Of a stretch of 64,000 bases of DNA, positions 22,764-40,189 are shown one piece after another. The number at the start of each line of letters is the position of its first letter. Position 1 is the stretch's first letter. Source of the stretch: Cepaea nemoralis. Lineage: Eukaryota > Mollusca > Gastropoda > Stylommatophora > Helicidae. The notes below the pieces were generated by a model. That model was not told where the DNA came from. It did not search any database and saw only the letters and a program-made list of their open reading frames with translations. Made by a program: the position numbers and the translations under genes. The stretch is taken from NCBI GenBank assembly GCA_014155875.1, contig JACEFZ010004196.1, forward strand, positions 917,001 through 981,000. The letters run 5' to 3'.

Positions 22764-22769
22764 AATCAA
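22764..22769. repeat. Maverick target-site duplication, left copy (AATCAA)
   Basis: AATCAA immediately before the AG end of the element; the same 6 bp follow the CT end at 40103-40108. Six bp is the usual Maverick/Polinton target duplication. Confidence 0.9.
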
Positions 22770-23382
22770 AGTAGTAGATTGAGGCCTCCAGACACATATT
22801 ATGCAACCAGAATCTGGAGGGTAATGGAGGGTAATAGTTTTATGAAGGAAATATGGGAAAATTGTCGACTCGGTAAAATTTTTGGCTGCGTGTGGGAACG
22901 GTTTTTTTAGCGGGTGTGAAAGTAATTAAGGTAATATTTAGTTGGTTCTGGAAACCGAGGTTGTGAGTATGGATGAGGGAGGGGTGTTATATATAGTTTG
23001 GTTACGTATATGAATGTGTTAGTATGCGTAGTGATGTATAAACAAGGGTGTGATGGGTCGTGGTTTCTACTCATGGGTTGGATATATGGTGGTGGCGTAG
23101 ACATAATGTGTCTGTTCGTGGTGAGTAATGTATAAACTGCCAAGGGTGTGATGGGTCGTGGTTATACTCGACGAAGTAAGAGGTGTAGATGGTTACTATC
23201 ATCTGAACAGTGTGATAGTAGTGTCTAAGTGAAAGTAAAGGGTGGTATGTAGCTTATTCACTACCATCATTACAAAGGAAATCTTATAAAGTTATAATGG
23301 GTGTCATTTGATGGTAAGGGGTGGGTATTAGTGATCAAGTAGGAGTGATATAGGGGTGGTCATAAATGTAATAAGAGGTGTT
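22770..23382 (+). repeat. Maverick left terminal inverted repeat
   Basis: Matches 40102-39434 in reverse complement. The first 130 bp are almost identical. Similarity then becomes patchy but collinear up to GATGGTAAGGGG...ATAATAAGAGG near 23380. Within the first 51 bp, CCTCCAGA (22785-22792) and TCTGGAGG (22813-22820) can pair to form an 8-bp stem with a 20-nt loop, present at both ends. A LINE-derived ORF (22554-22910) appears to run into it, but those codons are simply TIR sequence. Confidence 0.9.
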
Positions 23383-23394
23383 CGCAGTTACACA

Positions 23395-24015
23395 CTGGTC
23401 AACCAGTGGTCAAGCAATGGTCAAGTAAGGGTCAAGTAGTCAAGTAAGGAAATTTTAGGGAAAAGTGATTGTAATGAGATGGTGATGATTAAAGAGTGGT
23501 AAATTAGAGGTCAAGCAGTGGTCAAGCAGTGGTCAAGTAAGGAAAATTTTAGGGAAAATTGGTCGTAGTGACATGGTAATGCTTAAATTAGTGGTAAATT
23601 AGTGATCAAGTAGTGGTCAAGTAGTGGTCAAGCAGTGGTCAAGCGGTGGTTAAGTGAGGAAAATTTTAGGGAAATTTTAGGGAAAAGTGATTGTAATGAT
23701 ATGGTGATGATTAAAGAGTGGTAAATTAGTGGTCAAGCAGTGGTCAATCAGTGGTCAAGTGGTCAAGTGAGGAAATTTTAGGGGAAAAGTAGTTGTAGCG
23801 ACATGGTGATGCTTAAAAGGTGGTAAATTAGTGGTCAAGTAGTGGTCAAGTAGTGGTCAAGTGGTCGAGTGACCACTTAAATTGTAGAGGACGATGTGCC
23901 TAAGATTATGGTAGTGATTAAAATGATCGATGACGTGGTCAAGCAGTGGTCAAGCAGTGGTCAAGTAGTCAAGTAAGGAAATTGTAGGGGAAAGTACGTA
24001 TAGTGCAATGGTGAT
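23395..24015 (+). repeat. subterminal tandem repeats (GTGGTCAAG) of the Maverick
   Basis: About five or six higher-order units of 95-130 bp. Each holds a cluster of AGTGGTCAAG repeats followed by AAGGAAATTTTAGGGAAAAG and ATGGTGATG..TTAAA. TGGTCA occurs as direct repeats 4-5 bp apart. They lie between the TIR and the first gene, where regulatory or replication-related repeats would be expected. No ORF. Confidence 0.85.
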
Positions 24016-24119
24016 GGGTAAAGTGACGAGGAATCAATAGTAGTGATAATACTACTACCAATATTAGCGACAAGAATATTAGCTGGTGCATTGTTATTAT
24101 ACTATTTTTTGTGGGGTGT

Positions 24120-24515
24120 GTAAACATCATACAAAGAGGGTCATACAACCACAAGTACACACATGTACACACTTGATACATTTGTACATACATACACATA
24201 AAGACAGACAAGCACAAAGACACACCCATACTATTACTACTGTCATCACAACTACACACAAGTACACACACAAATACACACCTGCTGCAAACTCAAAGAC
24301 AAATACAAAGACAGCCAAGTACACAGACAACCCATACCATTACTACTGTCACTATCAACAGATATACACACGTGCAGAGACACACCCATACCATTACTAC
24401 TGTCATCACAACTACACACCCATAATCAATTACACAAATACACACCTACTACAAACTCAAAGACACACACCCATACCATTACTACTGGTACCACAACCAC
24501 TACAGATACACTTGT
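24120..24515. repeat. about 125-bp ACACAC-rich repeats
   Basis: Three imperfect copies around CACACCCATACCATTACTAC and TGTCATCACAACTACACAC. Long ORFs on both strands reflect the repeat. Confidence 0.75.
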
Positions 24516-24701
24516 ACATACAGACCTACAAGAATATCACATACCCCCTTTTGGTAAAGAACGCGGATGTCCGAGACAGCCCCTACGTCATCAACGCCAT
24601 ATGCAAAAGTCATTAAGTATGAGTCATCGGTGTGTAGGGAAGCAGGCGTGAGAATAGATTGTCTAACTGCCACGTCAGCTACGTTGTGTGCAGAACCAGT
24701 G

Positions 24702-24708
24702 TATAAAA
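24702..24708 (+). promoter_or_regulatory. candidate TATA box upstream of the zinc-finger gene
   Basis: TATAAAA within AGTGTATAAAATAGACGGCG, about 550 bp before the zinc-finger ATG and upstream of the 69-bp repeats. It is the best core-promoter match in the Maverick's left region. No initiator could be confirmed. Confidence 0.4.
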
Positions 24709-24764
24709 TAGACGGCGTCTCTTGTGAGCTCAGTACCAGTTCACGGCTGACTTGGGTATCTACA

Positions 24765-25150
24765 GCAGTGAAACAGGTTGATGTGAGCATTGTTCGTGTA
24801 GTAAGCAGATATTGTTCACGTACTGACTTGGCTAGCTACATCGGTGAAACTTGGTGTGAGCATTGTTCGTGTAGTAAGCAGATATTGTTCACGTACTGAC
24901 TTGGCTACATCGGTGAAACTTGGTTTGAGCCTTATTCGTGTAGTAACCAGCTATTGTTCACGTAGTGACTTGGCTACATCGGTGAAACTTGGTTTGAGCC
25001 TTATTCGTGTAGTAACCAGCTATTGTTCACGTAGTGACTTGGCTACAGCAGTGACACTTGGTTTGAGCCTTATTCGTGTAGTAACCAGCTATTGTTCACG
25101 TAGTGACTTGGCTACAGCAGTGACACTTGGTGTGAGCCTTATTCGTTTCG
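24765..25150 (+). repeat. about 69-bp tandem repeats before the zinc-finger gene
   Basis: Five to six copies of a unit containing GTGAAACTTGGTTTGAGC, TTATTCGTGTAGTAA and TTGTTCACGTAGTGACTTGG. The unit is a multiple of three bp, so an ORF runs through it (24844-25161), but this looks like a 5' leader or regulatory array. Confidence 0.85.
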
Positions 25151-25256
25151 TCGGCCTCTGATAAAACATTGAAACATTGTATACACCAGAACATTTTTTT
25201 GGTGATGTAAGAAAGAAAAAACAACCGAAAGTGTGACTTGTGGCCAGTTTATCAAT

Positions 25257-26081
25257 ATGACCACCAGATCTACTTTCACGTGTTCAGTGTGCGACAAAGA
25301 CTTCCGTGATAACTGTAAGCTCACTCGCCACATTCGTACCATTCACGATACGAAAGATCAACCACACTTATGTCATATCTGTGGACAACGTTTCAACAGA
25401 AAAGACAATCTACAAAAACACATACGAATACGTCATCGCCGGCCTATGGATACATCAGAACCAGAGACAACTACCTCTTCACCATCAGAGACAACACCAC
25501 CAACAACCTCGACGACACCACCAACTGAAACCAATATAACTAACAGTCAGATACAACCAGACGAGAATATTCTTGAACAAATGGTAGAAGACGAAGCTGC
25601 CATCTTAGCACCCGGGGAACCAGAGACACTACACATCCTTCCACCCGATTTTCAACAAATATATAGAGAAAATTGGGAAGCTATCAGGATACATCACAAG
25701 ATTAACAAGTATTTATTGACATACACCTTCTTTATTAGCCCGGAGATACAAAAGCCTATCAACTGGACAGATACGTTGTATAAGCTTTTCAATGCTCAAA
25801 TTAGTCGCTTTAAGATCAACTTTAGCTTTCATCTAGTGTTACGACATAGAGAAACACAAGATCTTAGATTCTATCATGCATCATTTAACAATTCTTCTGT
25901 TTTAGAATTTCCAGCGCTAATAAATAACAGATACGACTTTGACGCCTTCATTACAACAGTACACGAACATGACATTCATTCCTACGCCATGCAACAACGT
26001 ACAGACACCAAATACACACAAGAGACAGTAGCTGGCATATGTTTTTACCTCTTTCATATGCCCGAGTTCCCGATAGTTTGA
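25257..26081 (+). CDS. C2H2 zinc-finger protein of the Maverick
   Basis: 274 aa from the ATG at 25257. Two classical C2H2 fingers lie at residues 9-30 and 39-60 (CSVCDKDF...H..RTIH and CHICGQRF...H..RIRH). A Thr/Pro/Ser-rich linker spans about 65-110. A folded-looking C-terminal domain from about 125 contains INWTDTLYKLFNAQISRFKI and FRFYHASFN-like text (actual LRFYHASFNNSS). From memory, similar C-terminal domains occur next to C2H2 fingers and N-terminal to PolB in some virus-like elements, which would make this a leftover or split version of that region; this is not certain. It is the first gene of the element and probably a DNA-binding regulator or replication factor. An in-frame GTG at 25233 is less likely as start. 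Confidence 0.75.
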   Translation: MTTRSTFTCSVCDKDFRDNCKLTRHIRTIHDTKDQPHLCHICGQRFNRKDNLQKHIRIRHRRPMDTSEPETTTSSPSETTPPTTSTTPPTETNITNSQIQPDENILEQMVEDEAAILAPGEPETLHILPPDFQQIYRENWEAIRIHHKINKYLLTYTFFISPEIQKPINWTDTLYKLFNAQISRFKINFSFHLVLRHRETQDLRFYHASFNNSSVLEFPALINNRYDFDAFITTVHEHDIHSYAMQQRTDTKYTQETVAGICFYLFHMPEFPIV

Positions 26082-26313
26082 TGTCTAGGTCATCCCCCAA
26101 CTACATTGTTTTATATTTTTGTCACTAACCCTGTATGTCATTGATGTTTTCTTATAGCACTAAAGTGTTTTGATGAATAATACATTCTTTGATATATTGA
26201 AACCAAGATTTTTGTTGATTTTCTTTAGTGGTTTTGTTTTTACTTATTGTTCCGAGAGACAGCAACACTGACAGACAATGAAATAAAGACACACACTGAG
26301 ATGTATTATGTAT
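26082..26313. other. convergent intergenic region of the Maverick
   Basis: AT-rich spacer between the convergent zinc-finger and Bcl-2-like genes. AATACATTC and AATAAAG (26282-26287) could serve 3' ends; no ORF. Confidence 0.4.
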
Positions 26314-26766
26314 TTATTCAACTGATGTTTGCAACCAAGTATAGAAATTACGCCATCCACCTCCCAGTATCCAACGATGTAGTTTATCAGTCATATACAG
26401 GCCTACAGATGTAGCGAAGCTTTCCTCCAGGTCCTGGACACTCACGTCTGTATTGTAAGAATTATTAACCAGATGCTTACCCAGACGCATACCAAGTGTA
26501 AAAATCATCATTATTCTCCCATAGTTGATGACGTTATCGGCAAAGACTTCGTCAGCGATTGAAACAAAGACCGGGAAAACGTGTTCGGGCTTGATACAGA
26601 CTTCTAGTCTCGTGAATAACACATCGTGTTGGTTGGCTATCTGACGTACTAAGCGATACAACCTCGAGTTATTGGTCTTTGTGGGCTTGTAGGAACTAAT
26701 AATAGTCAACGCCATACTCACCACCTCGGTGTGAACTTGTATCAAGTCGACTATTGGGTCCATCAT
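26314..26766 (-). CDS. Bcl-2-like apoptosis regulator of the Maverick
   Basis: 150 aa from the first ATG (26766); the frame is open to 26856 without an ATG. The C-terminal half reads as a Bcl-2 fold. BH1 is VFADNVINYGRIMMIFTLG (compare the family pattern xLFxDG-xNWGRIVAFFxFG). It is followed by a helix ending MTDKL, and BH2 is HRWILGGGWRNFY (family WIxxxGGWxxF). A weaker BH3-like LYRLVRQIANQHD lies 35-45 residues earlier. There is no C-terminal hydrophobic anchor, as in several viral Bcl-2 proteins. It is the only Maverick gene on the minus strand, head to head with the ATPase, which suits an accessory gene. Family membership is inferred from motif order; a pro- or anti-apoptotic role cannot be decided, but protection of the infected or host cell is the usual role of virus-borne copies. 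Confidence 0.8.
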   Translation of the reverse strand: MMDPIVDLIQVHTEVVSMALTIISSYKPTKTNNSRLYRLVRQIANQHDVLFTRLEVCIKPEHVFPVFVSIADEVFADNVINYGRIMMIFTLGMRLGKHLVNNSYNTDVSVQDLEESFATSVGLYMTDKLHRWILGGGWRNFYTWLQTSVE

Positions 26767-26885
26767 TATTATACCAATAGCTACCAGAGATCCACTGGCG
26801 TGCAGTTGGTGGTCAAATGGTCTAATAATATCACCCGATACGTTTATAAACACCAATGCGAGTAGGTAGCTGTTTATTAATTCTC

Positions 26886-27500
26886 ATGGATCCTAGGTGG
26901 AAACATCCTTTTACGGCTTTGATTGCGGGCCCAACGGGGAGTGGTAAAACCGTCTTTGTCCAACGGTTCTTGACCCATCTACCAGCCATGGTAGACCCCC
27001 TTCCAGAGGAAATTATATGGTGCTATGGGGAATGGCAACCCATCTACGAAACTATGAAGGGTGTTCAATTTAATGAAGGTCTGCCAGATGTGGAAAAATG
27101 GACAGGGGATAGACGTCGGTTAGTAGTCATAGATGATCTAATGTCTGAGACAGATGACAGAGTGACTAAATTATTTACTAAAGGCAGTCATCATCGCAAC
27201 CTCGGTGTTATGTATATAGTACAGAACCTATTTGGTAAGAATAAAGAACAAAGAACTATCAGTCTGAATTCGCACTACCTAGTGGTGTTTAAGAATCCTC
27301 GAGACGGGTCTCAGATTACCAATCTCGCCAAACAGATGTATCCAGGCCGTGTGTCATATGTCCAAGAGAGTTTTAAAGACGCGACATCGGCTCCACACGG
27401 GTATTTGTTATTTGACCTGCGACAGGAAACACCGGATCAGCTCCGCTTACGAAGTCATATATTTCCCGACCAGCAGCAAGTCGTCTACGTCCCCAAATAA
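26886..27500 (+). CDS. FtsK/HerA (A32-like) genome-packaging ATPase
   Basis: 204 aa from the ATG at 26886 (a second in-frame ATG lies at 26856). Walker A is GPTGSGKT at residues 15-22 and Walker B is RRLVVIDDLM around 78-87. The conserved C-terminal pattern of poxvirus A32/Polinton ATPases follows: MYIVQNLFGKN, RTISLNSHYLVVFKNPRD. The protein powers packaging of DNA into capsids. Its length is normal for the family and the frame is intact. It heads a plus-strand block of close or overlapping genes; the next ATG begins 2 bp after its stop. Confidence 0.92.
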   Translation: MDPRWKHPFTALIAGPTGSGKTVFVQRFLTHLPAMVDPLPEEIIWCYGEWQPIYETMKGVQFNEGLPDVEKWTGDRRRLVVIDDLMSETDDRVTKLFTKGSHHRNLGVMYIVQNLFGKNKEQRTISLNSHYLVVFKNPRDGSQITNLAKQMYPGRVSYVQESFKDATSAPHGYLLFDLRQETPDQLRLRSHIFPDQQQVVYVPK

Positions 27501-27501
27501 C

Positions 27502-27825
27502 ATGTCTAACCGACTTAAACGTAACGAGGGTATGTTACGTTTCTTGGGTCAGACCAACCCAGCCACTGTGAAGGCAGTAATGAAATCAGCTTCCCCGGAT
27601 CTCGTCCAATCAATTTGCGAGTGCTGTCACAATGTTTTAAAAGGTAATGTTCCCCTGACACCAGCTCAGAAGAAGCGTCTGCAACGACACAAAGACAGTC
27701 TGAGAGCACTCACTCATAAGAAATTATCGCTTAAGAAAAGGAAAGAGATTCTACAACAAGGTGGTTTCATAGGCGCCTTACTAGGCCCCATACTAAATGT
27801 GTTGAAAAGCGTGGTGGGATTGTAA
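27502..27825 (+). CDS. small basic protein with hydrophobic C-terminus, Maverick
   Basis: 107 aa. It starts with a leucine/lysine-rich helical region (ECCHNVLKGNVPLTPAQKKR), continues with many Lys/Arg, and ends in a glycine-rich hydrophobic tail (GGFIGALLGPILNVLKSVVG). This layout, basic body plus amphipathic or hydrophobic end, recurs in virus-like elements that carry F54H12.2-type capsid genes. It could be a virion core or membrane-active protein comparable to adenoviral pX or pVI. The function is inferred, not shown. The stop overlaps the next start (TAATG). Confidence 0.7.
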   Translation: MSNRLKRNEGMLRFLGQTNPATVKAVMKSASPDLVQSICECCHNVLKGNVPLTPAQKKRLQRHKDSLRALTHKKLSLKKRKEILQQGGFIGALLGPILNVLKSVVGL

Positions 27826-28253
27826 TGGCCAAGAAGATGATCTTGATCGATCCCCGGTTGCTAGAAAAACCCTATATACCACCCGACACACTAAATGATA
27901 GTCTACAGGATTTGGATCGTCAGATGCAACAAGTCCTGGAAACAGAAGATCTACCACCACGTGACAAGGCCAGAGCCTATCAGCAAACACTACAGAGGTA
28001 TCTGAATCGACTCGAACAGTACAGACACAAGCCTCTGGGACTAGTAGATATCAAGGAACAAAAACCTGAAGTCACCAGTGTACCGACACCAGTAGCCGAG
28101 ACACCTCTTCAACCAACACCTCTTCAACCTATTCAACCGGCTCAAGTAGTCGAACCCAAAACAGTCGAGACCACACCACATTACAAACTCAGGCGAAGTA
28201 AGAAGAAGACTAGGATACCTACCCCCAAGTGGCAAAAATGGCCGCCCAATTAA
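27825..28253 (+). CDS. coiled-coil/Pro-rich protein of the Maverick
   Basis: 142 aa. The N-terminus MAKKMILIDPRLL is followed by a probable helix rich in Q, L, D and E (residues about 20-70, LQDLDRQMQQVLETEDL). A Thr/Pro/Gln-rich linker comes next, and the end is basic (YKLRRSKKKTR). It starts in a TAATG overlap with the preceding stop and ends 16 bp inside the integrase gene. Proteins of this type sit between the small basic protein and integrase in related elements as far as I recall; the role is unknown. Confidence 0.65.
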   Translation: MAKKMILIDPRLLEKPYIPPDTLNDSLQDLDRQMQQVLETEDLPPRDKARAYQQTLQRYLNRLEQYRHKPLGLVDIKEQKPEVTSVPTPVAETPLQPTPLQPIQPAQVVEPKTVETTPHYKLRRSKKKTRIPTPKWQKWPPN

Positions 28254-29287
28254 GAAAATATTACTATGACCCAAAGAAGCCGGGGGCCTATGGTGGAGCC
28301 GCCGCCTTAAAAAGAAATACTAACCTGAAGAAAATAGATAAATGGTTACGTCATCAGGATACCTACACGTTACATAAACCGATCCGTCGCCGATTTCAGA
28401 GACGCCAGACCATAACCGGTGGTATAAATCAACAATTTCAAGCCGACTTGATAGATATGAGACTATTACAATGATACAACGATGGGATGTCGTACCTAGT
28501 GACTTGTATCGATGTGTTTAGTAAATATTCTTGGGCTATCCCGATCCAGAAGAAAACAGGGAAAGCGCTGGTGGTGGCTATGAGTAAAATCTTTGGTGAT
28601 AGCCAACCGATAAATTTTCAGAGCGATAAAGGTTCGGAATTCGTTAATCGGACCTTCTTAAAATTTCTGAAAGATCGAGGTGTGCACTTCTTTACCACCG
28701 AGAATGAAGATGTGAAGGCAGCGATAGTGGAAAGATTCAATCGAACCCTGAAAGAAAAAATGTGGCGTTATTTCACCAAGACCAATACACTGCGCTACGT
28801 CAACGTGATAGATAAATTGATCCAGAACTATAATGGTTCGTATCACAGAAGTATTCGCATGGCCCCTGTACAAGTCAACTATAGTAATCAAGAAGAGGTG
28901 TGGGATAACTTGTATAAGGCGACATACGTATCGAAAAAAGTGTATTTTACACCTGGGGATCGAGTCAGACTGGCTGAACCCAAACAACCTTTTCAAAAAG
29001 GGTATATGCCCTCGTGGACAGAAGAATTGTTTACCGTCAGTCGCATAAACCAGACCAGTCCAGTGACCTATGTGGTAAAAGATGATTCGGGAGAGGAACT
29101 ACAGGGCTCGTTCTACAGAGAAGAAATACAACTAGTTGGAGACAAGCAAGTGTATCGTATCGAAACAATCTTACAAGAAAGACCCAGGCGAGGTGGTGGG
29201 AAAGAGTATTTAGTGAAGTGGTTTGGTTATCTCCATTCATTCAATAGTTGGATAGCTGGCACGCAACTAGCTAGTTATGGAGACTAG
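28238..29287 (+). pseudogene. Maverick integrase (rve plus chromodomain) with an in-frame TGA
   Basis: About 349 codon positions from ATG 28238. The first catalytic aspartate is in FQADLIDM and the second in INFQSDKGSEF. The glutamate is in IVERFNRTLKEKMWRY, so the DDE triad is complete. An SH3-like segment follows (PGDRVRLAE), and a C-terminal chromodomain (EYLVKWFGYLHSFNSWI) may guide integration. It resembles the C. elegans transposon-derived protein F54H12.3. A single TGA at 28472-28474, in frame between the first aspartate and YNDGMSYLVTCID, stops translation, so this copy should not make active integrase unless the codon is read through. It is the enzyme that joins element ends and creates the 6-bp duplication. 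Confidence 0.9.
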
Positions 29288-29554
29288 TGGTGTGAGTGAA
29301 GACAGGGTGGAAACTATGGGGGTGCGCCCACAACTGACAGAGGGGGAAAGATCATCGATCTGGTCATTCTTTGGACAACGTGTACCGAGACCAGAGATTG
29401 TATTTCTGTGTCAAATGGTGGTTATATAATTGCCGTGTCTTTGTTCAATCTGACTCAAGGCAGCGCAGACGCACCAGACGGCAAGTTGTGGGTAGCTCTA
29501 ATGAGTAGTTGTTTGGGCTATATGCTACCTAATCCTAAATTAGAAAAACGATGA
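29277..29554 (+). pseudogene. small membrane protein of the Maverick, one frameshift
   Basis: Begins at ATG 29277 (11 bp inside the integrase end). The frame runs through SIWSFFGQRVPRPEIVFLCQ and ends at TAA 29427-29429. The protein continues in another frame from about 29423 (YIIAVSLFNLT, LWVALMSSCLGYMLPNPKL) to TGA 29552-29554, which overlaps the next start as ATGA. The two pieces together look like a two-pass hydrophobic protein of under 100 residues ending in a PNP motif, a type I recall alongside F54H12.2-type genes. A one-base indel near 29421-29429 is the likely break. Confidence 0.65.
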
Positions 29555-30321
29555 GTTTCTACGTAACTTTACCTAGTAATTCTGGACCAAAGGTATTTCC
29601 CAACAACCAACCCGGTCACTTTTTTGTCAAGTTGCCGCAGACCATTGATGTAACGACCCAATACGAAGTGGCCCTGGTCGAGATTCAGTTCCCCAATTCG
29701 TATTTTAATGGTTTGCCTGGTGAAATTTGGTTCCAATACTTTCCACCTAAAGGTAGTGGTATGGAACCTATAACCCTTGTATGCCCACCGGGTCCGTTCA
29801 GCAGCCCTGAAACTTTCATCGAGGAATTGAATAAGTTGTGTGTAGAAACCCAACTAGACGAGAAAGTAAACATCAAATTCATGCTAGGTGCACCTTGGAA
29901 AAAGGTCGGGATGAAAATATTTGAAAAAGGCGCCCAGGCTAAAGTTAGTGACAGATTGAAGAATATGTTGGGTCTTCCCAGCTCGACTCTATCAGACGAT
30001 AATGTCTTATTATACGGTAATACAGAATTAGAGATGGATAACGGAGTTAAAAATATCTACGTCTATTCAGATCTCGTAGCCGCGAGACCAGTTGGAGACA
30101 TCATGGTTCCTTTACTAAGGACTGTTCCTATATTGGACCGACTGTCACCTTCAGTGTTTCGTCTTTATGATAAGCCACATTATGTACCATTAAGTCGATT
30201 CTCCTTCGACACGGTGGAAATACTTTTAACTGACGATACGGGTAAAACACTCTCATTCAACGATGGGACTTCAGTACTAACTTTACATTTTCGAATCAGG
30301 AAGCACTCAGACCTCGAATAG
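29551..30321 (+). CDS. penton-like minor capsid protein, copy 1
   Basis: 256 aa, intact. The N-terminus has SFYVTLPSN and FFVKLPQTI, then YEVALVEIQFPNSYFN. The C-terminus has NIYVYSDLV, VGDIMVPLLRTVP, HYVPLSRFSFDTVEILLTDD and a final LTLHFR. The C-terminal FDTIEI.I.D..G..F..G...LHFR pattern is that of the penton/minor capsid proteins of Polintons and related viruses, which form a single jelly roll at the five-fold vertices. A paralogue follows 6 bp downstream, so the gene is tandemly duplicated. The role is inferred from motif and context. Confidence 0.75.
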   Translation: MSFYVTLPSNSGPKVFPNNQPGHFFVKLPQTIDVTTQYEVALVEIQFPNSYFNGLPGEIWFQYFPPKGSGMEPITLVCPPGPFSSPETFIEELNKLCVETQLDEKVNIKFMLGAPWKKVGMKIFEKGAQAKVSDRLKNMLGLPSSTLSDDNVLLYGNTELEMDNGVKNIYVYSDLVAARPVGDIMVPLLRTVPILDRLSPSVFRLYDKPHYVPLSRFSFDTVEILLTDDTGKTLSFNDGTSVLTLHFRIRKHSDLE

Positions 30322-30327
30322 ACTAAT

Positions 30328-31140
30328 ATGAGTTTCTACGTGACGCTGACGAGTAATGCGTCATTACAAATATACCCCCAAAATAACGCCGGACATTTCT
30401 TTGTCAAGCTGCCACAAACTATTGAGCTCACCTCCCAGTACGAGGTTGGTTTGGTCGATATTCAGTTTCCCAACACCTATTTTAATATTTTGAAAGACGA
30501 GGTGTGGATAAAGTACTTTCCACCTCCAGACCTAGATGAACCACCGATGACGATTAAGCTGACGCCTGGTCTGTACAAATCAACAGAAAAATTCATTGGA
30601 GAATTGAATAGATTGCTTTTCGAAGCTGAGAGATTTATCAATGAACTGCAATGGCTGCGTCTCGATGATGCCTTACAAGAACATAACCGAATGATGTTCT
30701 CTTATAACGATATTTCGAATAAGGCTCGTTTCCAGTTATATGAACAGGGGGCTGAAGTTAGGCTTAGTGACAAGTATGCAGAAATATTACAGTTTCCCTC
30801 GACACATGTCACCGAGACTGAACCCAGTCTGTCTGGTGTGGGTGAAGTGGATTTAGACCAGGGCACAAAAAATGTCTTCGTCTATTCCGATATTGTCACC
30901 TCGCGGGTGGTTGGTGATGTGATGGTACCATTACTGAGGACACTGCCTGTTCTAGACAGATCTACCACCTCGGTATTTAGGATGTATGACAAGTCACATT
31001 ACGTACCCCTCAGTCGATTTTCATTTGACACGATTGAACTTCTTATAACCGACGAGCAGGGGAAACCTATCCCATTTACAGGTGGAACTTCAGTAGTGAC
31101 GTTACATTTTCGAACAACCAAACGGTTTGATCTGGGCTAA
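30328..31140 (+). CDS. penton-like minor capsid protein, copy 2
   Basis: 270 aa, intact, alignable end to end with the preceding protein (shared SFYVTL, GHFFVKLPQTIELTSQYEVG, VGDVMVPLLRTLP, SHYVPLSRFSFDTIELLITD, VTLHFR). It has a roughly 15-residue insertion around residues 95-115 (AERFINELQWLRLDDALQEH region). The two paralogues have diverged substantially while both staying open, which argues that both were kept under selection, perhaps for two vertex or spike proteins. Confidence 0.75.
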   Translation: MSFYVTLTSNASLQIYPQNNAGHFFVKLPQTIELTSQYEVGLVDIQFPNTYFNILKDEVWIKYFPPPDLDEPPMTIKLTPGLYKSTEKFIGELNRLLFEAERFINELQWLRLDDALQEHNRMMFSYNDISNKARFQLYEQGAEVRLSDKYAEILQFPSTHVTETEPSLSGVGEVDLDQGTKNVFVYSDIVTSRVVGDVMVPLLRTLPVLDRSTTSVFRMYDKSHYVPLSRFSFDTIELLITDEQGKPIPFTGGTSVVTLHFRTTKRFDLG

Positions 31141-31142
31141 CC

Positions 31143-31604
31143 ATGGTTAGGCACGTGCCAATCCAACGCAACCCCAAATTATACGAGGACTATTTCTGCA
31201 ATCAAGCTGGAAGTGGTCTCCCTGTTTTTGTAGGTGGTCGAAGTCAGCGAGGTCATGGAATTGGTAGTTTCTTTAGTGGTCTTGGTCGCACAATTCTTCC
31301 TTGGTTGAAGACGGGTGGCAAAGCCCTATTGAGAGAAGGACTTGAGACGGGTTTGCAAGTGGCTCAAGATGCTTTAGCTGGTAGAAATGTTGGTGAGTCC
31401 TTCAAAGAACACGCCAGAGATGCTGGTCAACGACTACTCCAAGGCGCAGCTCAACACATCAGCCAATCAGGTAGTGGTGTTAGGAAACGAAAACGAGCCG
31501 CCCCGCCAGGTCAGCCCAGTAAAAGAATAAAACCAACAGTCAGAAAGTCGTCGAGTCATAAGACACATCACCACCAAGCGGGACATTCGGATATTTTCTC
31601 ATAA
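31143..31604 (+). CDS. pX/pVI-like virion core protein
   Basis: 153 aa. A glycine-rich segment (GHGIGSFFSGLGRTILPWLK) is followed by an amphipathic helix (LLREGLETGLQVAQDALAG), a basic patch that looks like a nuclear localisation signal (VRKRKRAAPPG..SKRIK) and a His/Ser tail. The composition and position before the capsid gene match the core or membrane-lytic proteins (pX, pVI) of adenovirus-like elements. The stop overlaps the start of the capsid gene (TAATG at 31602-31606). Confidence 0.7.
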   Translation: MVRHVPIQRNPKLYEDYFCNQAGSGLPVFVGGRSQRGHGIGSFFSGLGRTILPWLKTGGKALLREGLETGLQVAQDALAGRNVGESFKEHARDAGQRLLQGAAQHISQSGSGVRKRKRAAPPGQPSKRIKPTVRKSSSHKTHHHQAGHSDIFS

Positions 31605-32914
31605 TGGCGTTAATTCATCCCAAGTCGTGTGAGTGTCTGCATTCTGGTCTGGATCTGTTTAGTGTACCTCCCACCCAGACAGCCGTGGAAGAGGGACAGT
31701 TTGTGGAGATTCATCCATTGGCCACTTTAGCTTATGGGGCACCCATCGAATTCACCATTTCTGGTGTCGGTGAAGATTACATTGATTTGTTTAATACTTT
31801 TCTACACGTGAGAGCCAAAGTTACACTGCCCAATGGCGACGACCTACCAAACACAGCCGAAGTCGGTCCTATAAATTATTATTTGCATAGTTTGTTTTCT
31901 CAAGTAGATGTGTCCCTGAACGACACTCTTATTTCACCGAGTGAAAATTCGTATCCGTACCGGGCCTACTTGGAAGCTCTTCTGAATTATGGTGAAGAGG
32001 CCAAAAAGAGTCATCTGACGTCAGCTCTATACTATCAAGATACTCCTTTGCACATGGCAGACACAAAGGGTGATAACAATACAGGTCTAGCCAAAAGAAG
32101 ATCATTAGCCAGCTATAGTGTGCCTCTGGATATGATGGGGCGCCTACATTCCGACATTTTCAATCAGGACCGGTACATGTTGAATGGTGTCGATATTAAA
32201 ATCAAACTAACCCCATCAAAGTCCGCCTTTAATTTGATTGCCACGGATGTAAATGGTGGGTACAAAAGTGTCATTACTTACGCCGCCCTCTTGGTGAGGA
32301 AAGCTAAGTTAAATCCAGCTATCTCTCTGGCCCATGAACAAGCCTTATTGAGAGCCAATGCCAAGTATCCTTTTAAAAGGGTCGTGGTAAAGACCTTTTC
32401 TATCCCTAAAGGTATGTTTTCCCACACACTAGATAACCTTTTCCTCAGCCAGACACCGACCCGGGTGGTGATCGGATTAGTGAATGCTTCCTGCTTCAAT
32501 GGCGAGCTGAATACGAACCTCTTCATATTCAATCATTATCAGTTAAACTATTTGAGTCTGATGGTAGATGGGCGTAGTGTTACAGGCAAACCCTTAACCA
32601 TGAATTATACCACAGGTCAGTACATGCGAGCTTTCCATAGTACCAACTTGGCCCTTGGTCTGACCGGTACGGATGTCGGGAATGGTATAAATTATGAAAG
32701 TTATAGTCAAGGGAATTGTCTCTATAGTTTTGATCTGACTCCCAGTATATTAGATGGAGAACAATTTGAAATGGCGAAATCTGGCCCATTGTCAGTAGAA
32801 CTAAAGTTTGACGTTATAACGACTGTACCTCTACAAGTCATCGTATACGCCGAACTCGATTCGGTCCTAGAAGTTTCCAAGACGAGACAAGTGCTAACAG
32901 ATTACATAGCATAA
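31604..32914 (+). CDS. major capsid protein candidate, F54H12.2 type
   Basis: 436 aa, intact. It resembles the uncharacterised C. elegans F54H12.2 family, which accompanies F54H12.3-type integrases in Maverick-like elements. Typical text includes IEFTISGVGEDYIDLFNT, PINYYLHSLFSQVDVSLND, PYRAYLEALLNYG, YMRAFHSTNLALG and the C-terminal VELKFD...VIVYAELDSVLEV. The C-terminal pattern (F.LTP, then L.F......VYAE.D) is that of double jelly-roll capsid proteins of Polintons and nucleocytoplasmic viruses. It is expected to build the icosahedral shell. It is bracketed by TAATG overlaps on both sides. Confidence 0.85.
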   Translation: MALIHPKSCECLHSGLDLFSVPPTQTAVEEGQFVEIHPLATLAYGAPIEFTISGVGEDYIDLFNTFLHVRAKVTLPNGDDLPNTAEVGPINYYLHSLFSQVDVSLNDTLISPSENSYPYRAYLEALLNYGEEAKKSHLTSALYYQDTPLHMADTKGDNNTGLAKRRSLASYSVPLDMMGRLHSDIFNQDRYMLNGVDIKIKLTPSKSAFNLIATDVNGGYKSVITYAALLVRKAKLNPAISLAHEQALLRANAKYPFKRVVVKTFSIPKGMFSHTLDNLFLSQTPTRVVIGLVNASCFNGELNTNLFIFNHYQLNYLSLMVDGRSVTGKPLTMNYTTGQYMRAFHSTNLALGLTGTDVGNGINYESYSQGNCLYSFDLTPSILDGEQFEMAKSGPLSVELKFDVITTVPLQVIVYAELDSVLEVSKTRQVLTDYIA

Positions 32915-33396: not shown

Positions 33397-33420
33397 AACT
33401 AGATAAATTCGTCGTTATAA

Positions 33421-33609
33421 AATGAGACGACCACTCGTATTTTTGTGTCTACAACGATCAAGATTTCTACACCCAAGTGGTTATTCATGCCAAAACCTGT
33501 TGATATGCCCAGACAACTAGACAACAGTTTGAAAGCGGTGACAGTTTCTCAAGACACAGGAACAACGACACTACATCTATATCAATCTACCGACAGTCAA
33601 GACATCTTT
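33421..33609 (+). CDS. small ORF at the end of the Maverick gene block
   Basis: The frame is open from 33421 with an ATG at 33487, giving 40 residues (MPKPVDMPRQLDNSLKAVTV at the start) and a stop at 33607-33609. A second ATG at 33422, in another frame, begins MRRPLVFL and could be the true start if one base has been lost or gained near 33440-33450. The open region ahead of ATG 33487 (TTIKISTPKWLFMPKPVDMP) looks protein-like, which supports a broken longer gene. Function unknown. Confidence 0.4.
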
Positions 33610-33680
33610 CTACAATAAGCAAGTACCCCTCTGCTCCCTTTGGAACATAAAACAAAACCCAGTTTTAATTGTTGTATACC

Positions 33681-33686
33681 AATAAA
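33681..33686 (+). promoter_or_regulatory. poly(A) signal after the Maverick late block
   Basis: AATAAA about 72 bp after the last stop of the plus-strand gene block and the first canonical signal downstream of it. Confidence 0.5.
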
Positions 33687-33753
33687 AGCCATTTGAAAAT
33701 GTTATTATTTGTTTCTCTATTTTATTATGTTTTTGTTCGATTGTATAGTTTTT

Positions 33754-34457
<704 letters not shown>

Positions 34458-34468
34458 AGGAACAGTTC
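34458..34468. repeat. LINE target-site duplication, left copy
   Basis: AGGAACAGTTC, repeated exactly at 39301-39311; brackets the LINE. Confidence 0.9.
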
Positions 34469-37400
34469 TTCTTCTTCTTCTTCTTCGTTCATCCGGAGTT
34501 TTTTTTTCGGACGTGATTGCGTTGTGCCTGTCCACAGCAGAGCTGCGTTCTTGCGCCGTTAGGCCGACACATCCGACTTCTGCGGGCATTTGTTGACCGG
34601 GTTAACCTTCCCGGGGGTTTCTTAGGACGTTTGGCTCTCACTGTTGTGGTGTTATCCCCCATCCCAGCTGGCCCATATAGAACAGCCAAAGACATCCTGG
34701 TCAGCCCTCAAGGGAAGGCAGGGGCAGACCATGGGCATTCCCCGCCATCCAAGGAGGCTTCCATACTTGCAGAGCCAACACACAGCGCTCTGGTACTGGG
34801 CTCACCCAAGGAATCGTCACGTCCTGCACATGGCTGCTTAGCCTCACTTCCGTATATTGGGCCTTCCATTCACCATAGGCTGTTCTTCCGGAAACCAGAA
34901 GTATGCAGTCTGCAGATGACATCCACACAGTGAGCTTTCGATTCGGACTTTCCACATAATGGATTTGCTATCCAAGCAATATTCCATTTCGTGCCACTAG
35001 GACACTTTTTCCACCTTTTATGAAGCCCACACAGTGTGCTTTCGATTCGGACTTTCCACATAATGGATTTGCTATCCAAGCAATATTCCATTTCATGCCT
35101 CTGGGGCGCTTTTGTAACCGACATACCTGTGGTATGAAGTGCGGCAGTCTAAATACTTCTTCATGCACCTTTAAATGTCAACCTGAATGTAGTTAAAGTA
35201 AGCTGCAGTCAACTTGAGCTTGTTGATATCTCCATAGAGCTTGTCCTCAAATGAAGCAGGTGTGGGCCAAAATATCTTTCTATGTTCTGCATATATTGGT
35301 CACTCCTGCAGCAAATGTTTAGCTGTCATTTTACCAGTTCCACAATTGCATTCATCGGTATCTCCTATCTTTAGTTTATTGAACAAGTGGTATTTCAGCC
35401 TGTTATGTCCTGTGCGGAGTCTGAAGATTGCTACTTGTTCTCTTCGGTCGAGTTTGTAATATGCATCATCCTTCTGGTGACCTGGATGCTCTGATTCCCA
35501 TTTGGTTCTATAAGTGCTTTTTATCAACCTCTTTGCCTCGTTATAGGTTATGTCTATGTCAGGCTGTAGTAGTCGTCCGCCCTCTTTTGCCAGTCTGTCA
35601 GCCTCTTAATTTCCAGGTATACTGCAATGTGATGGTATCCACTGTATTACAACTTTTTTGGATTTCTGGCATAGACCATGGAGTGCTGCTCTTAGGTCAG
35701 CTATTTCTGTGCTGTAATTGCTCTTCAGTATTGAGACAGCTGACTTTGCATCTGTAAAGATAGCTATTTGCTTCTCTTTATTTTCCTCCATCAAGAGCAT
35801 TTCTGCTGCAGTTTTCAGAGCCTCTACCTCCGCTTTGAAGTTACTTGAAAACTTTCCAGTTGCCACTGAATGTGTTTTTTTCACTCCATTTTTTAAATTT
35901 ATGAGAATTCCTCCTCCTCCATTCTCTACTGAATTTTTGGCTGATCCATCTGTATATGCATGGGTCCAATTGCTGCTTGGGTAATGTTCTTTTATGTAGT
36001 TTAGGGTTATTTCTCTTCTTTCGGTTTCATGCTGAGTGTTCTTTTTCTCAATACCAGGAATGTTTTCTATCATCTCAGGCAGTAGCTGCTGTCTCCAAGC
36101 TGGGAACTTGTCTGCATTGTAAATGGGTTTGACTGTTGATATGTTAAGTATGGGATCTGCCCTAATCTTTCGTTTTGCAGTTTCTACAAAGTTGCTACGC
36201 TTCAGTCTTCCCTTTCCAAAACCACTAAACCTTTTATACATAGGGTGGTCTGTCAATCTTCTAAATTTTTCAGCTTGTTGCTGGGCTCTGCTATCTCTTC
36301 TATCCTGCATTGGTTGTAAACAAGTGATCTTTTCTAGTTCATTAATAGGCGTTGTCTTCAGGCTTCCAGTTATGATTCGCATTCCTTGATTTTGGACTCT
36401 GCTTATTTTGTTAAAGTTTGACTTAGCTGCTGTTGCCCAAGCTGCAATGCCATATTCCAGTACTGGCCTCACCCGTCCAGTATATAACTTCTTGAGAACT
36501 TTCTCATCTGCTCCCCACGTTGTACCAGCAAGCTTTTTCATGATTGCCATTCTTTGCCTTGCTCTTGTTCGATTTTTCTCAACCTGTGTCTTCCATGTCA
36601 GGCGACGATCAAAGGTGACTCCTAGATAGTTTGGATTTTCTTCATGGCGCAATATTTTTCCATTCAATACCAGCTTAGGTTGCTGAGTTTTAGTTGAGAG
36701 GGAGAATACTGTGCATGTTGTTTTCTCCTCACTTATCTTCACTAGCCATGATTTTGACCAGTCCTCTAGCGCTAATAGGGCTTGCTGTATTCTGCTGTTA
36801 GCTGTACTAATATATTCTTCAGATGTCCATATGGCTAGGTCATCTGCAAAGGATGATGTGTGTACTCTGGCTGGAAAATTTTCCGTGATGTCGTTTATAT
36901 ATGCTAGGAATAATGTTGGTGAAAGAACTCCTCCTTGGGGGACACCTTGCTCCAACAGCATCATTTTGCTGGTTTGTCCTTGTACTTTTGTCCTGGCAGT
37001 TCTGTTCTCAAGGTAGTGGCTGATCCATTTGTACATTTTCCCACAAACATGCATTTTTTGCAGTTTTACTTTCAGTCCTTCCTTCCATACTTTATCAAAT
37101 GCTTTTTCTAAATCTATCCAGACCGCTAGTGTGTGCTTTTTCTCTTGGAAGGCATCCTCTATTTCCTGAGCTATATAGGTTATTTGATCTTCAGTGGATC
37201 TGTACTTTCTGAATCCTGCTTGGTGAGGTGTTATGAGTTGGTTTTCTTCCAGGTGCCATGTTAGCCTGCCATTGATAATGCGTTCCATTAATTTCCCTAC
37301 ACAGCTAAGAAGACTGATAGGTCGATAGCCATTTGGTTCTTCCAGGTTTTTTCCTTTCTTTGGGACTGGTATTAGTATAGCTTCCTTCCATGCCTGTGGG

Positions 37401-39300
37401 ACTATTCCCCTCTTCCAGCTGTAATTTAGGACTGCTAGTAGTTTCTTTTTTGCCTTAGTGCCTAGTCCTATTAGCATTTCATTTGTGATTCCATCCTTTC
37501 CTGGTGATGTCTTCTTTTTTAGTTTATTCATTGCCTGTTCCATTTCTTCCATTGTTAGATTTGCCATCATATATTCTGCTGCTGTCTCTGTATATCTATG
37601 ATGTATCTGTTTATCTTTGATTGCTTTCTTCTGTTCGGCTGTAATATCAATGTGGTTTGCACTGGCATAGTGTTCCATTAGTGCATTTGCAGCCTTTTTT
37701 CCTGTAAGCAAGGCATTTCCTTGTTTAATTGTTATTTGTTTGTTTCTAGGTCCTTCATTGTTCATGGCTTTCACTAGTTTCCATAGTTTGTTTCCATCCC
37801 TGTCAAAATTCAGGTTTTCTGTTTTTTTCCTCCAACAATCTCTTGTTGTTTGATTTACTGTTCTTTTATATTTTGCTGAGATGGCTTTGAGAGAGATGTT
37901 CGCTTCAGTTGTTTGTTCTCTCTCTGCGGTCTTCCTAGCATCTTCAACTTTGTCCTCCAAAATTTGTAGTTCCTCAGTCCAGTATGGTTTGTAATTTTTC
38001 CTCGCTCCTCTTGGAATAGACTCAGTGGCCGCATGTATTATTGCTCTGTTTAGACTTTCCACCATTTGCTTCATGTTGCCATATCGTGTATTTATGTTTT
38101 CACAATATTTGTCTGTTAGTATGGAAAATCTGTCCCAATCTGCTCGTTTGTAATTCCAGCGAGGCAAAGGCTTTTGCTCCTGTGGAACATACTCCATATT
38201 TATTACAAGCTTGATTGGTCTGTGGTCACTACCTGCTAATTGGTCAAGCACATGGCGATCGATTTTGTGGAGGATGTCTCCTGTGCAGAAAGCTAAGTCT
38301 GGAGTAGAAGTGGTAATCCATCTTCTGGAGTAGAAGCTCGGTGTGTCATCCGCTTTGTTGAGTAGATGGAGATTTGAGTCTATTTCCCAGTCCTCCACTT
38401 CATCTCCTCTTTTGTCAGTATCTGGGTATCCCCATCTTTCTGAACGGCTATTAAAGTCTCCGACAACAATGCAATTTGTGTCAGTTATTTCCATGTTTGA
38501 GAGTGTAAGATCCTTATCTGCCGGGCTATACAGATTGTAAATTCTTATTTTCACGTCCTTTATCATTATATCAACACCTATAATTTCCGTTTGGTTGTCA
38601 GAGATCACAGATACTTCGCTGCAAGGTATTGTATTTCGTGTAAGTATTACAACTCCTCCTTTGTGTCCTTCGCGGTCGAAACGTGTGGCCTGATATTCCT
38701 TGACTGAAAATGTGCGATTGGCGTTGAGGTGTGTCTCTTGAATGCATGCCACATCTATTCTATCTTTATGAAGACGCTGTGTTAGGGAGGCTTTCTTGTT
38801 ATAAACTCCTTCTGCATTCCATTGTAGTATGTTGAGTGTCCGGGGTGTTTGGTCAATAACTCTTAACCTACTCCTCTGTGCCTTGACTCCACAGCATAGG
38901 GGAAGGTGACCACCAGTAGTCATGGGTGGATCCCCTCGAGGCAGGGGGCCCGGCACTATCACCGCCTGATGGGACTTCACGGGATTAGCACCATAACGAT
39001 TAATTTTCATCTGTGGCATCATGAAATGATAAAGTTACGTTGCACTTCTTTGTCAAGCCTGTGGCTCAGTACATCCGATTTCGACAAGCATTTGTTCGGG
39101 ATGCTTTCCCTAGCCTTTGACTGTCCCCAGTCTACCTACAAGGCAGCAGGTTTGTGCGTCACTTCGTCTGGTCCCTCTCCCTTGACCTGTCCGACATGGG
39201 TGACCCTACCAGTAGCTGTGCTACCGTCGGCATAGCTCTTGGGGTCATTTGAACGCTCAAGCCCCTCTACCTCGTCAAGGTGGACGCACGGCAGAGTGGG
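34469..39300 (-). mobile_element. full-length LINE (EN-RT-RNase H) inserted in the Maverick
   Basis: 4,832 bp on the minus strand, with a (GAA)n 3' tail (plus strand TTC run at 34469-34486) and an 11-bp target duplication AGGAACAGTTC. The 5' region (39300-39023) contains the dispersed segment also found near 6330-6450 and 7270-7385. The 3' UTR holds two tandem 105-bp units (GCTTTCGATTCGGACTTTCC at 34934 and 35039). Other 3' ends of this kind lie at 59985-60253 and 63205-63450. Because it is inside the Maverick, it is younger than the Maverick insertion or came with it. Confidence 0.92.
35171..39022 (-). pseudogene. LINE polyprotein (endonuclease-RT-RNase H), two nonsense codons
   Basis: One frame from 39022 to 35171, broken only by TAA at 35608-35606 and TGA at 35302-35300. 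The apurinic-type endonuclease comes first (NILQWNAEGVYNKK, IQETHLNANR, IVVGDFNSRSERWG, LAGSDHRPIKL). The reverse transcriptase follows (NGYRPISLLSCVGKLMERII, VWIDLEKAFDKVW, GVPQGGVLSPTLF, SFADDLAIW). RNase H is last (HAYTDGSAKN, KAEVEALKTA, AIFTDAKSAV, IQWIPSHC). The first stop falls within the RNase H core just before its last catalytic region; the second lies in a C-terminal zinc-knuckle-like end (CNCGTGKMTAKHLL). There is no separate ORF1. The layout fits the I-like group of LINEs, though I cannot name the clade. Confidence 0.9.
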
Positions 39301-39311
39301 AGGAACAGTTC
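39301..39311. repeat. LINE target-site duplication, right copy
   Basis: AGGAACAGTTC, matching 34458-34468. Confidence 0.9.
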
Positions 39312-39433
39312 AAGCACCTGGAACCGTATTGACACCGGGAGATCTGCGGGCCCGATCGACATCACCATTTACACCGGATATCAACCACTTTACGACCCCC
39401 TCACTATATTACTAAGCCCAGACTCTTTTTTTA
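39312..39433. other. Maverick sequence between LINE and right TIR
   Basis: About 120 bp with no recognisable feature. Confidence 0.5.
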
Positions 39434-40102
39434 GATTATATCCTCTTATTATAAACATCGCTATATCAACCCCTAATACCCCTTACCATCATATCCTTTA
39501 TAAGCTTTTCGGTGAAGAAGCCACCCTTTAATTTCACTAAGACACTACTATCGCCCTACACTTAACACACTTGGTACCGACACGATCCAACTTTTATCCC
39601 TTCCTATTTTAATTATTTTCACAGACTACATTCCCACACCAGGCAACCATCAAGAATTTTCTACGAGCGTAAATATGATTGGAACCCTCGCTTTCATTAC
39701 ACCTCTGCCCTCTGACCCCATCATTCCCGCCTAAACACTTCTGTCTTATTTTGCCATATACACTCCACTCGTTTATCTTTCACTACAGCTCACCACTCAT
39801 AGTTGTCTAATGACAGTTTATCTTTCACTCGCCACTCATACTAATATACCCTACGTAACCAAAATAACTTTCCCCTTCACAACCTCTCTTTCCAGTACAG
39901 AACCAACCAACTAAAAATCCAACCTTAATTACTTTCACAGATTTTCCCACCAGCCAGGCCGAAAAAACCCGTTCCCACAGGCCGCCAAAAATTTTACCGA
40001 GTCGACAATTTTCCCCATATTTTCCTTCATAAAACTATTACCCTCCATTACCCTCCAGATTCTGGTTGCATAATATGTGTCTGGAGGCCTCAATCTACTA
40101 CT
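39434..40102 (-). repeat. Maverick right terminal inverted repeat
   Basis: Reverse complement matches 22770-23382, starting AGTAGTAGATTGAGGCC at 40102 and staying collinear to about 39434. The terminal 8-bp stem (40052-40059 with 40080-40087) is conserved. Several small indels distinguish the two ends, so they are not recently homogenised. Confidence 0.9.
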
Positions 40103-40108
40103 AATCAA
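40103..40108. repeat. Maverick target-site duplication, right copy (AATCAA)
   Basis: Same 6 bp as 22764-22769, directly after the terminal CT. Confidence 0.9.
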
Positions 40109-40180
40109 GGCGAGAGACAGGCAGTGCTGGAGATCCATTGCAGCTAACCTTCATTGTGGAGACGGCACTTGACTTAATGA
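40103..40180 (+). pseudogene. LINE C-terminus resuming after the Maverick
   Basis: Codons ARDRQCWRSIAANLHCGDG and a stop complete the LINE interrupted at 22769. A 69-bp satellite follows directly. Confidence 0.7.
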
Positions 40181-40189
40181 AGTAAAGAA

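What the first reader, a model, noticed from the sequence alone, without database searches (positions are those of the whole stretch)
22770..40102. A complete Maverick/Polinton-like element without PolB
Ends, 6-bp target duplication and TIRs are all readable, so the boundaries are certain enough to count genes. Integrase, packaging ATPase, protease, capsid and penton genes are present, but nothing resembling a PolB lies between the TIRs, and about 12.5 kb remains after removing the LINE. Either PolB was lost (defective copy) or this lineage replicates with a host or partner polymerase. Autonomous Polintons are normally defined by PolB plus integrase.
Basis: partly seen in the sequence, partly recalled or inferred. 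Interest (0 to 1): 0.9.

Follow-up and report, generated by a model that had tools for sequence, protein, structure and literature searches.

The report
Capsid half of a split Polinton
A virus-like mobile element in an animal genome carries capsid, packaging and integration genes but only the front end of its DNA polymerase gene, and it likely depends on sister elements in the same genome, the sampled ones of which carry the long polymerase gene and lack the capsid genes.

Summary
The boundaries hold: 82-bp perfect TIRs, 6-bp duplication AATCAA, 12.5 kb without the LINE. "No PolB" is only partly right. The ORF at 25233-26081 is the N-terminal part of a protein-primed PolB: zinc fingers plus the domain before the OTU-like stretch. 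In sister copies the same sequence (91% in L048) runs on into a PolB frame of up to 1502 aa.

Of 150 scored genomic copies of this domain (3278 candidates), 126 end at the same residue, as here, and 24 run on. A listed capsid gene lies 6.0-6.7 kb behind 47 of the 126, and within 40 kb of 0 of the 24. At 7 of 7 run-on sites sampled, no capsid, integrase or ATPase gene was found behind PolB; at 6 of 7 a related right end follows, once after a protease remnant.

So this is not one damaged copy but a high-copy lineage: capsid/integrase genes and polymerase genes lie on separate, complementary elements. A third class with the same TIRs carries a PPP1R15-like gene. I read it as a split, perhaps multipartite, Polinton. 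Trans-replication is inferred; a complete one-piece copy elsewhere was not excluded.

The parts
22764..22769 (.). left target-site duplication AATCAA
   Evidence: read directly
22770..22851 (+). left TIR, perfect part (imperfect extension to 22908)
22910..25232 (.). left arm, repeat-rich, no gene found; related to the inverted arms of the short third-class elements
25233..26081 (+). 282-aa ORF: C2H2 zinc fingers plus the N-terminal (predicted terminal-protein, D1) domain of pPolB, ending where PolB-type copies run on into PolB
   Evidence: zinc fingers; 126 of 150 scored copies end at the same residue, 24 run on; L048 frame of 1502 aa
26317..26856 (-). Bcl-2 family protein, 180 aa
   Evidence: PF00452 9.8e-12; PDB Bcl-2/Bcl-xL chains from 3.1e-6
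26856..27500 (+). predicted packaging ATPase
   Evidence: Adeno_IVa2 0.0012, Pox_A32 0.0025, below cut-offs; PHROG terminase-type 4.5e-4
27409..27825 (+). 138-aa ORF, function unknown, conserved between copies
   Evidence: dN/dS 0.05 against L050, 7 changes
27825..28253 (+). 142-aa ORF, function unknown
   Evidence: dN/dS 0.08 against L050, 9 changes
28229..28474 (+). integrase, first part; ends in an in-frame stop in this copy
   Evidence: same frame as the next ORF; open in L050
28487..29287 (+). integrase core and chromodomain
   Evidence: rve 1.9e-10, Chromo 6.3e-8
29551..30321 (+). penton-like protein A (named by recall and position)
   Evidence: paralogue of the next ORF; no family match
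30328..31140 (+). penton-like protein B (named by recall and position)
   Evidence: 49-50% identical to A; no PHROGs match
31143..31604 (+). 153-aa ORF, function unknown
   Evidence: no family match
31604..32914 (+). major capsid protein, double jelly roll, 436 aa
   Evidence: 1870 homologues; 96 genomic copies scored
32914..33396 (+). predicted adenain-type protease
   Evidence: Peptidase_C5 6.3e-4, just below cut-off
34469..39299 (-). LINE inserted into this copy, 12-bp duplication, absent from L015 and L048
40021..40102 (-). right TIR, perfect part (imperfect extension to 39962)
40103..40108 (.). right target-site duplication AATCAA
   Evidence: read directly

Best explanation
The element at 22770-40102 is the capsid-and-integration half of what is likely a split Polinton, predicted to be copied in trans by the protein-primed PolB of sister elements that, where sampled, lack the capsid genes. 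It keeps the N-terminal zinc-finger domain of PolB as a separate short protein; by its place before the OTU-like stretch, and by a low-confidence model, this is predicted to be the terminal-protein (priming) domain. The sister elements keep PolB, have a left arm of their own with a PC4-like ORF, and share a related right end. Shown: the shared break point, the complementary gene sets at sampled sites, the related right ends, high copy number and mostly open frames. Inferred: that the PolB-type DNA is integrated by the integrase made here, that both are packaged in the capsids made here, and that the short third class, which carries a PPP1R15-like gene between inverted arms, rides along as a satellite or further segment.
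For: 126 of 150 scored copies of the PolB N-terminal domain end at the same residue and 24 run on. A capsid gene lies at 6.0-6.7 kb behind 47 of the 126 (43 of these 47 at 6040-6083 bases) and no listed capsid gene lies within 40 kb of any of the 24. L048 encodes the domain and PolB in one 1502-aa frame, and matches a PF03175-positive PolB at 1.5e-29. Behind PolB at 7 of 7 sampled sites: no tblastn hit to capsid, integrase, ATPase or penton-like proteins; at 6 of 7 a related right end; L056 keeps a protease remnant there, a deletion scar. PolB-type left arms from three contigs are 90-97% alike over 2.6-3.2 kb. 89 of 96 scored MCP copies have no inner stop, all at 95-100% identity. dN/dS of the PolB remainder is 0.25 over 1012 codons.
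Against: Only best candidates were scored (150 of 3278, 96 of 2270), and the genome-wide search with the L048 PolB did not complete, so a one-piece copy is not excluded. Between the domain and +3.9 kb I read the DNA at only two of the seven run-on sites (L048, L049). L055 showed no right end. A complete PolB-type element with both ends and a target duplication was not seen: C22284 has an inverted 136-bp match at 94% about 13.0 kb apart, but no duplication. The window's left arm and the PolB-type left arm differ except for short matches near the left end of C22284 (79 nt at 86%, 46 nt at 83%). The TIRs of PolB-type copies differ from the window's at 7 or 8 of 34 positions where scored. The terminal-protein reading has weak support: profile comparison with another PolB family failed, and the fold search found nothing below 1e-3. 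dN/dS of the truncated domain is only 0.13-0.81 between pairs, and against L009 that of the whole ORF is 0.99.
Confidence: 0.5

Rival explanations
1. An ordinary non-autonomous derivative: one Polinton copy lost most of PolB and was amplified in trans by complete, one-piece Polintons that are still in the genome; the PolB-type copies without capsid genes are separate deletion derivatives, not a partner segment.
For: Non-autonomous derivatives are normal for transposons. Other PolB families are intact and numerous: 95 PF03175 matches, many frames over 1100 aa, and one of them has integrase- and ATPase-like hits beside it (L046). Only part of the candidates was scored.
Against: No one-piece copy of this family was seen: 0 of 24 run-on domains have a listed MCP within 40 kb, and 7 of 7 sampled run-on sites lack capsid genes behind PolB. 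The three sampled PolB-type left arms are the same sequence, so PolB-type copies look like one lineage rather than scattered deletions.
Confidence: 0.38
2. A dead copy: the missing polymerase, the integrase stop and the LINE simply show decay, and the shared break point reflects one old event copied passively.
For: This copy has an integrase stop and a LINE. L015 has small indels in the 153-aa ORF and the protease and a 33-base gap in penton-like B, and its left end is lost into an inverted arm.
Against: The copy L050 is open at the integrase. 89 of 96 MCP copies have no inner stop. Two copies at different sites (flanks AATCAA and AGCTTC) are 98.7% alike over 9.2 kb. This points to recent spread of the lineage.
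Confidence: 0.05
3. The element is copied by the host's replication machinery and needs no PolB; the retained zinc-finger domain serves another purpose, such as TIR binding or gene regulation.
For: The domain has zinc fingers, and its priming role is not shown.
Against: The domain is the front of a PolB present in the same genome with related right ends, which is a simpler source of replication.
Confidence: 0.07

Closest known systems
Polinton/Maverick elements
   Same: TIRs, 6-bp target duplication, rve integrase, ATPase-like, adenain-like protease, double jelly-roll capsid protein
   Different: no full PolB in the element; only its N-terminal part; PolB lies on other elements
Adintoviruses (definition from passages of PMC11071296)
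   Same: integrase with C-terminal chromodomain; the sister PolB carries an OTU-like stretch; duplicate pentons are reported there in a few genomes
   Different: there PolB and hexon define the group in one genome; here they lie on different elements. The passages mention genomes with adenovirus-class virion proteins that lack both PolB and integrase; here the integrase is kept
Polinton-like viruses (definition from a passage of PMC11071308)
   Same: capsid genes without a full PolB
   Different: PLVs mostly lack the rve integrase and carry other replication proteins; here the integrase is kept and no other replication gene was found by Pfam
Bidnaviruses and Drosophila Vesanto virus (passages of PMC8363768, and PMC11071296)
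   Same: works like them if true: PolB-bearing DNA viruses with capsid and polymerase genes on different segments
   Different: parvovirus-type capsid; here a double jelly-roll capsid, an integrase and copies integrated in the host genome
Adenoviruses, separate terminal protein (PMC11071308 section 7, read)
   Same: would resemble a terminal protein encoded apart from the polymerase
   Different: here the fragment carries zinc fingers and looks like a truncation of a fused PolB; the priming role is not tested

Membership tests
Polinton/Maverick (autonomous) | terminal inverted repeats and 6-bp target duplication | tested here: met
Polinton/Maverick (autonomous) | retrovirus-like integrase | tested here: met
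   rve 1.9e-10; interrupted by a stop in this copy, open in L050
Polinton/Maverick (autonomous) | full protein-primed PolB in the element | tested here: not met
   only the N-terminal part at 25233-26081; so not an autonomous Polinton
Polinton/Maverick (autonomous) | double jelly-roll major capsid protein | tested here: met
Polinton/Maverick (autonomous) | packaging ATPase and adenain-type protease | tested here: inconclusive
   Pfam matches below cut-off: 0.0012 and 6.3e-4
Adintovirus | OTU-bearing PolB together with hexon and chromodomain integrase | tested here: not met
   hexon-type fold and integrase present, PolB not in this element; OTU-like stretch only in sister copies and named by recall
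Polinton-like virus | lack of the rve integrase, other replication proteins | tested here: not met
   rve integrase present
Multipartite virus | genes needed for one life cycle split over separate DNA units | tested here: inconclusive
   complementary gene sets at sampled copies; census incomplete
Multipartite virus | units packaged and transmitted together or in separate particles | not testable with these tools
   needs virion or episomal DNA
Terminal protein (D1 fold) | 4-stranded sheet, two helices, linking Ser/Tyr between helix 2 and the last strand (PMC11071308) | tested here: inconclusive
   single-sequence model, pLDDT 54.8, strand/helix order compatible; BFVD: 0 rows at 1e-3; mavirus polymerase, an adenovirus pTP and an adintovirus polymerase at ranks 4, 6, 26, but with E 0.016 or more among unrelated proteins

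The most novel reading that the evidence does not exclude
A multipartite Polinton: one virus lineage whose capsid/integrase/Bcl-2 genes, PolB/PC4 genes and a PP1-recruiting (PPP1R15-like) gene sit on three separately mobile, TIR-bounded DNA units of one animal genome. Sequence from the zinc-finger start of the PolB gene occurs on all three classes; on the capsid unit it survives as a stand-alone primer protein that ties the unit to replication by the PolB unit.
Probability: 0.4. Interest if true: 0.92.

Novelty: new variant of a known kind. Interest (0 to 1): 0.8.

Why it matters
Polintons are the classic self-synthesising transposons, defined by PolB plus integrase in one unit. A recent, high-copy lineage that keeps these on different elements would show that the pairing can come apart and still spread. 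It would also catch the step from a one-piece to a many-part DNA virus while both halves, the break point and a deletion scar are still readable in one genome. The retained N-terminal PolB domain makes the question of what primes Polinton DNA directly testable: the element shed the polymerase but kept that domain. The accessory genes (Bcl-2 family here, PPP1R15-like in the short class) are of the kind viruses use against apoptosis and translation arrest, which favours a virus life over a plain transposon life.

Tried and rejected
PolB by family models: Pfam on ORFs, on six frames of 22770-26402 and 33300-35802 and on three forward frames of 38800-40104 found no polymerase. The 1502-aa PolB of L048 also has no Pfam polymerase hit at E 0.1, so a Pfam-negative scan says little for this family.

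I suspected from memory that the C-terminal part of ORF 25233-26081 is a PolB N-terminus. The protein database gave only zinc-finger hits (2 proteins) and nothing for residues 110-282. Three PolBs of other families gave no usable similarity, and a profile comparison failed. The genome search and L048/L049 settled the PolB link.

Relatives in IMG/VR: 80 pattern matches, none confirmed. Phage records: none. Fold search of the fragment: nothing at 1e-3. A one-copy deletion was rejected for the lineage. Literature: the listings showed no title or abstract start about a split or bipartite Polinton; the library is open-access only, lists were capped, and Starrett et al. 2021 was not held.
Full report
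The observation. The element is real. Its two ends are 82-nt perfect inverted repeats (22770-22851, 40021-40102) with imperfect extensions, flanked by AATCAA on both sides. The terminal 17-mer occurs twice in the window (0.12 expected) and 14 times in the 3.47-Gb genome in which the window lies. A LINE occupies about 34469-39299: in a second copy (L015, contig C20409) window position 34468 joins 39300 with a 12-base overlap, which is the LINE's target duplication. The PolB-type copy L048 shows the same LINE-free junction. 12502 bases remain.

The PolB question. ORF 25233-26081 (282 aa) has zinc fingers at its start and, from about residue 106, a domain without a Pfam match. Searched in the genome, that domain returned 150 scored copies out of 3278 candidates, all at least 89% identical. 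126 of 150 match to residue 177 of the query, with frames of 180-363 aa; the other 24 stop matching at residue 175 or 176 and have frames of 288-1502 aa, 18 of them 393 aa or longer. In the longest, L048 (contig C19856), one open frame of 1502 aa reads zinc fingers, this domain, an OTU-like stretch, and exonuclease-like and polymerase-like motifs (YDYECYF, KLLGNAAYGKT, MDTDSLYL; motif names recalled). It has no Pfam polymerase hit, but matches a PF03175-positive PolB of the same genome (L029) at 1.5e-29. The window ORF ends in ...PEFPIV and a stop where L048 reads ...PDFPIGCWLGD; DNA similarity ends 8 and 25 bases after the stop codon against L048 and L049. So the window ORF is the front of PolB. 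The stop was read directly in four copies (window, L009, L015, L050); for the rest it is read from frame lengths.

What the fragment may be. PMC11071308 (passages, and sections 6 and 7 read) describes eukaryotic pPolBs as D1, homologous to the terminal proteins of PRD1 and adenoviruses, followed by D2; its abstract names TP and vOTU domains. The fragment lies just before the OTU-like stretch, so D1 is the natural reading. My tests are weak: a single-sequence model with pLDDT 54.8 has a compatible strand/helix order; BFVD gave nothing at 1e-3, although a mavirus polymerase, an adenovirus pTP and an adintovirus polymerase are at ranks 4, 6 and 26; a profile comparison with the D1 region of another PolB family failed (probability 0.1%).

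Complementary elements. The MCP has 96 scored copies (2270 candidates), all at least 95% identical, 89 without inner stops. 49 domain-MCP pairs lie within 40 kb on one strand, all with truncated-type domains; 47 are at 6.0-6.7 kb, 43 of them at 6040-6083 bases (window: 6056); the other two are at 13.9 and 16.5 kb. None of the 24 run-on domains has a listed MCP within 40 kb; one shares a contig with an MCP 132 kb away. I sampled the stretch behind PolB at 7 of the 24 run-on sites (L048, L052-L057). None gave a tblastn hit to MCP, integrase, ATPase or penton-like proteins. In 6 of 7 part of the window's right-end region (34141-34468 and/or 39300-39879) follows, at 69-98% identity; L055 showed nothing; L056 keeps a protease remnant, residues 52-160, just before the right end. 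At five of the seven sites the PolB gene itself was not fetched. TIR-like termini were read at the right end of three (L048, L054, L056). Upstream, PolB-type copies from three contigs share a left arm, 90-97% alike over 2.6-3.2 kb, that is not the window's arm; only near the left end of C22284 (L060) are there short matches to the window's left end. In L058 the arm holds a PC4-like stretch (0.039, below cut-off), similar to an ORF next to the C1179 copy that passes the PC4 cut-off (1.9e-8). In C22284 the two ends are a 136-bp inverted match at 94%, about 13.0 kb apart; no target duplication was seen.

A third class. The 12 other sites of the 17-mer lie on 11 contigs, and all were fetched inward. 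Five elements have both ends and identical 6-bp flanks (C2991, C14149, C16003, C21798, C26165); C26339 has both ends with flanks differing at one base. They are long inverted arms related to the window's left arm around a short centre, without capsid or integrase hits in what was fetched. In four contigs (C21798, C23465, C26165, C26339) the centre carries an ORF pair whose second part resembles the PP1-binding end of PPP1R15B and the viral protein DP71L (PDB, E 0.03 and 0.053; Pfam PP1c_bdg 0.031, below cut-off). Of the other contigs, C20409 and C1179 hold capsid-type copies (C20409 loses its left end into an inverted arm; C1179 is cut inside the ATPase), C16433 runs into the LINE, and C6343 has a diverged end only.

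Activity. C20409 and the window copy are 98.7% identical over 9.2 kb at different sites. dN/dS: PolB remainder 0.25 over 1012 codons; against L050, ATPase 0.33, penton-like A 0.35, two small ORFs 0.05 and 0.08, integrase parts 0.03 and 0.63, Bcl-2 0.56, finger part 0.70; the truncated domain 0.13-0.81 between pairs of truncated copies. Against L009 the whole finger ORF is 0.99 and Bcl-2 0.79; against L015 MCP is 0.30 and protease 3.0 on 11-12 changes each. Counts are small and copies recent, so only PolB carries weight alone.

Other PolBs. PF03175 found 95 matches (91 of 297 candidates scored), many with frames over 1100 aa, of other families; I see none on the 12 contigs of the 17-mer (read by eye). 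One of them (C10418) has integrase- and ATPase-like hits beside it (L046) and looks like an ordinary one-piece Polinton.

Reading. One ancestral Polinton probably gave rise to two complementary, high-copy element types with related right ends and a shared PolB N-terminus. The working model is trans-complementation: PolB from one, integrase and capsid from the other, with the short class as passenger. Shown is the anatomy; replication, integration and packaging in trans are inferred. The main gap is the missing PolB census. No listing or passage that I saw (PMC11071296, PMC8363768, PMC8097293) describes such a split in Polintons.

Noticed in passing
26317-26856 (-): A Bcl-2 family gene inside a Polinton, present in all three other capsid-type copies fetched (L009, L015, L050). 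One paper holding all of polinton, maverick and bcl-2 was listed and not read.
   Followed up: partly
L016:5493-6352: Third-class elements carry a PPP1R15/DP71L-like ORF pair between inverted arms; possible translation-rescue gene on a short satellite.
   Followed up: partly
L029, L030 and other PF03175 places: Other PolB families with open frames of 1241-1409 aa are numerous; in C9089 and C19005 two PolB genes face each other a few kb apart.
   Followed up: partly
L009:1005-1628 and L058: PC4-like ORF on PolB-type left arms and beside the truncated capsid-type copy in C1179, which looks like a chimera of the two types.
   Followed up: partly
C8929:35665-36195 (+) and 40146-40676 (-): Two truncated-type PolB N-termini face each other about 4 kb apart.
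   Followed up: no
40104-41000 and 24778-25179: Two unrelated-looking tandem arrays, both with a 69-nt period, one just outside the right end and one inside the left arm.
   Followed up: no
L021:4313-8698: A retroelement ORF of 1461 aa near the C1179 copy.
   Followed up: no
33750-33940: CT and TA microsatellites between the protease gene and the right end.
   Followed up: no
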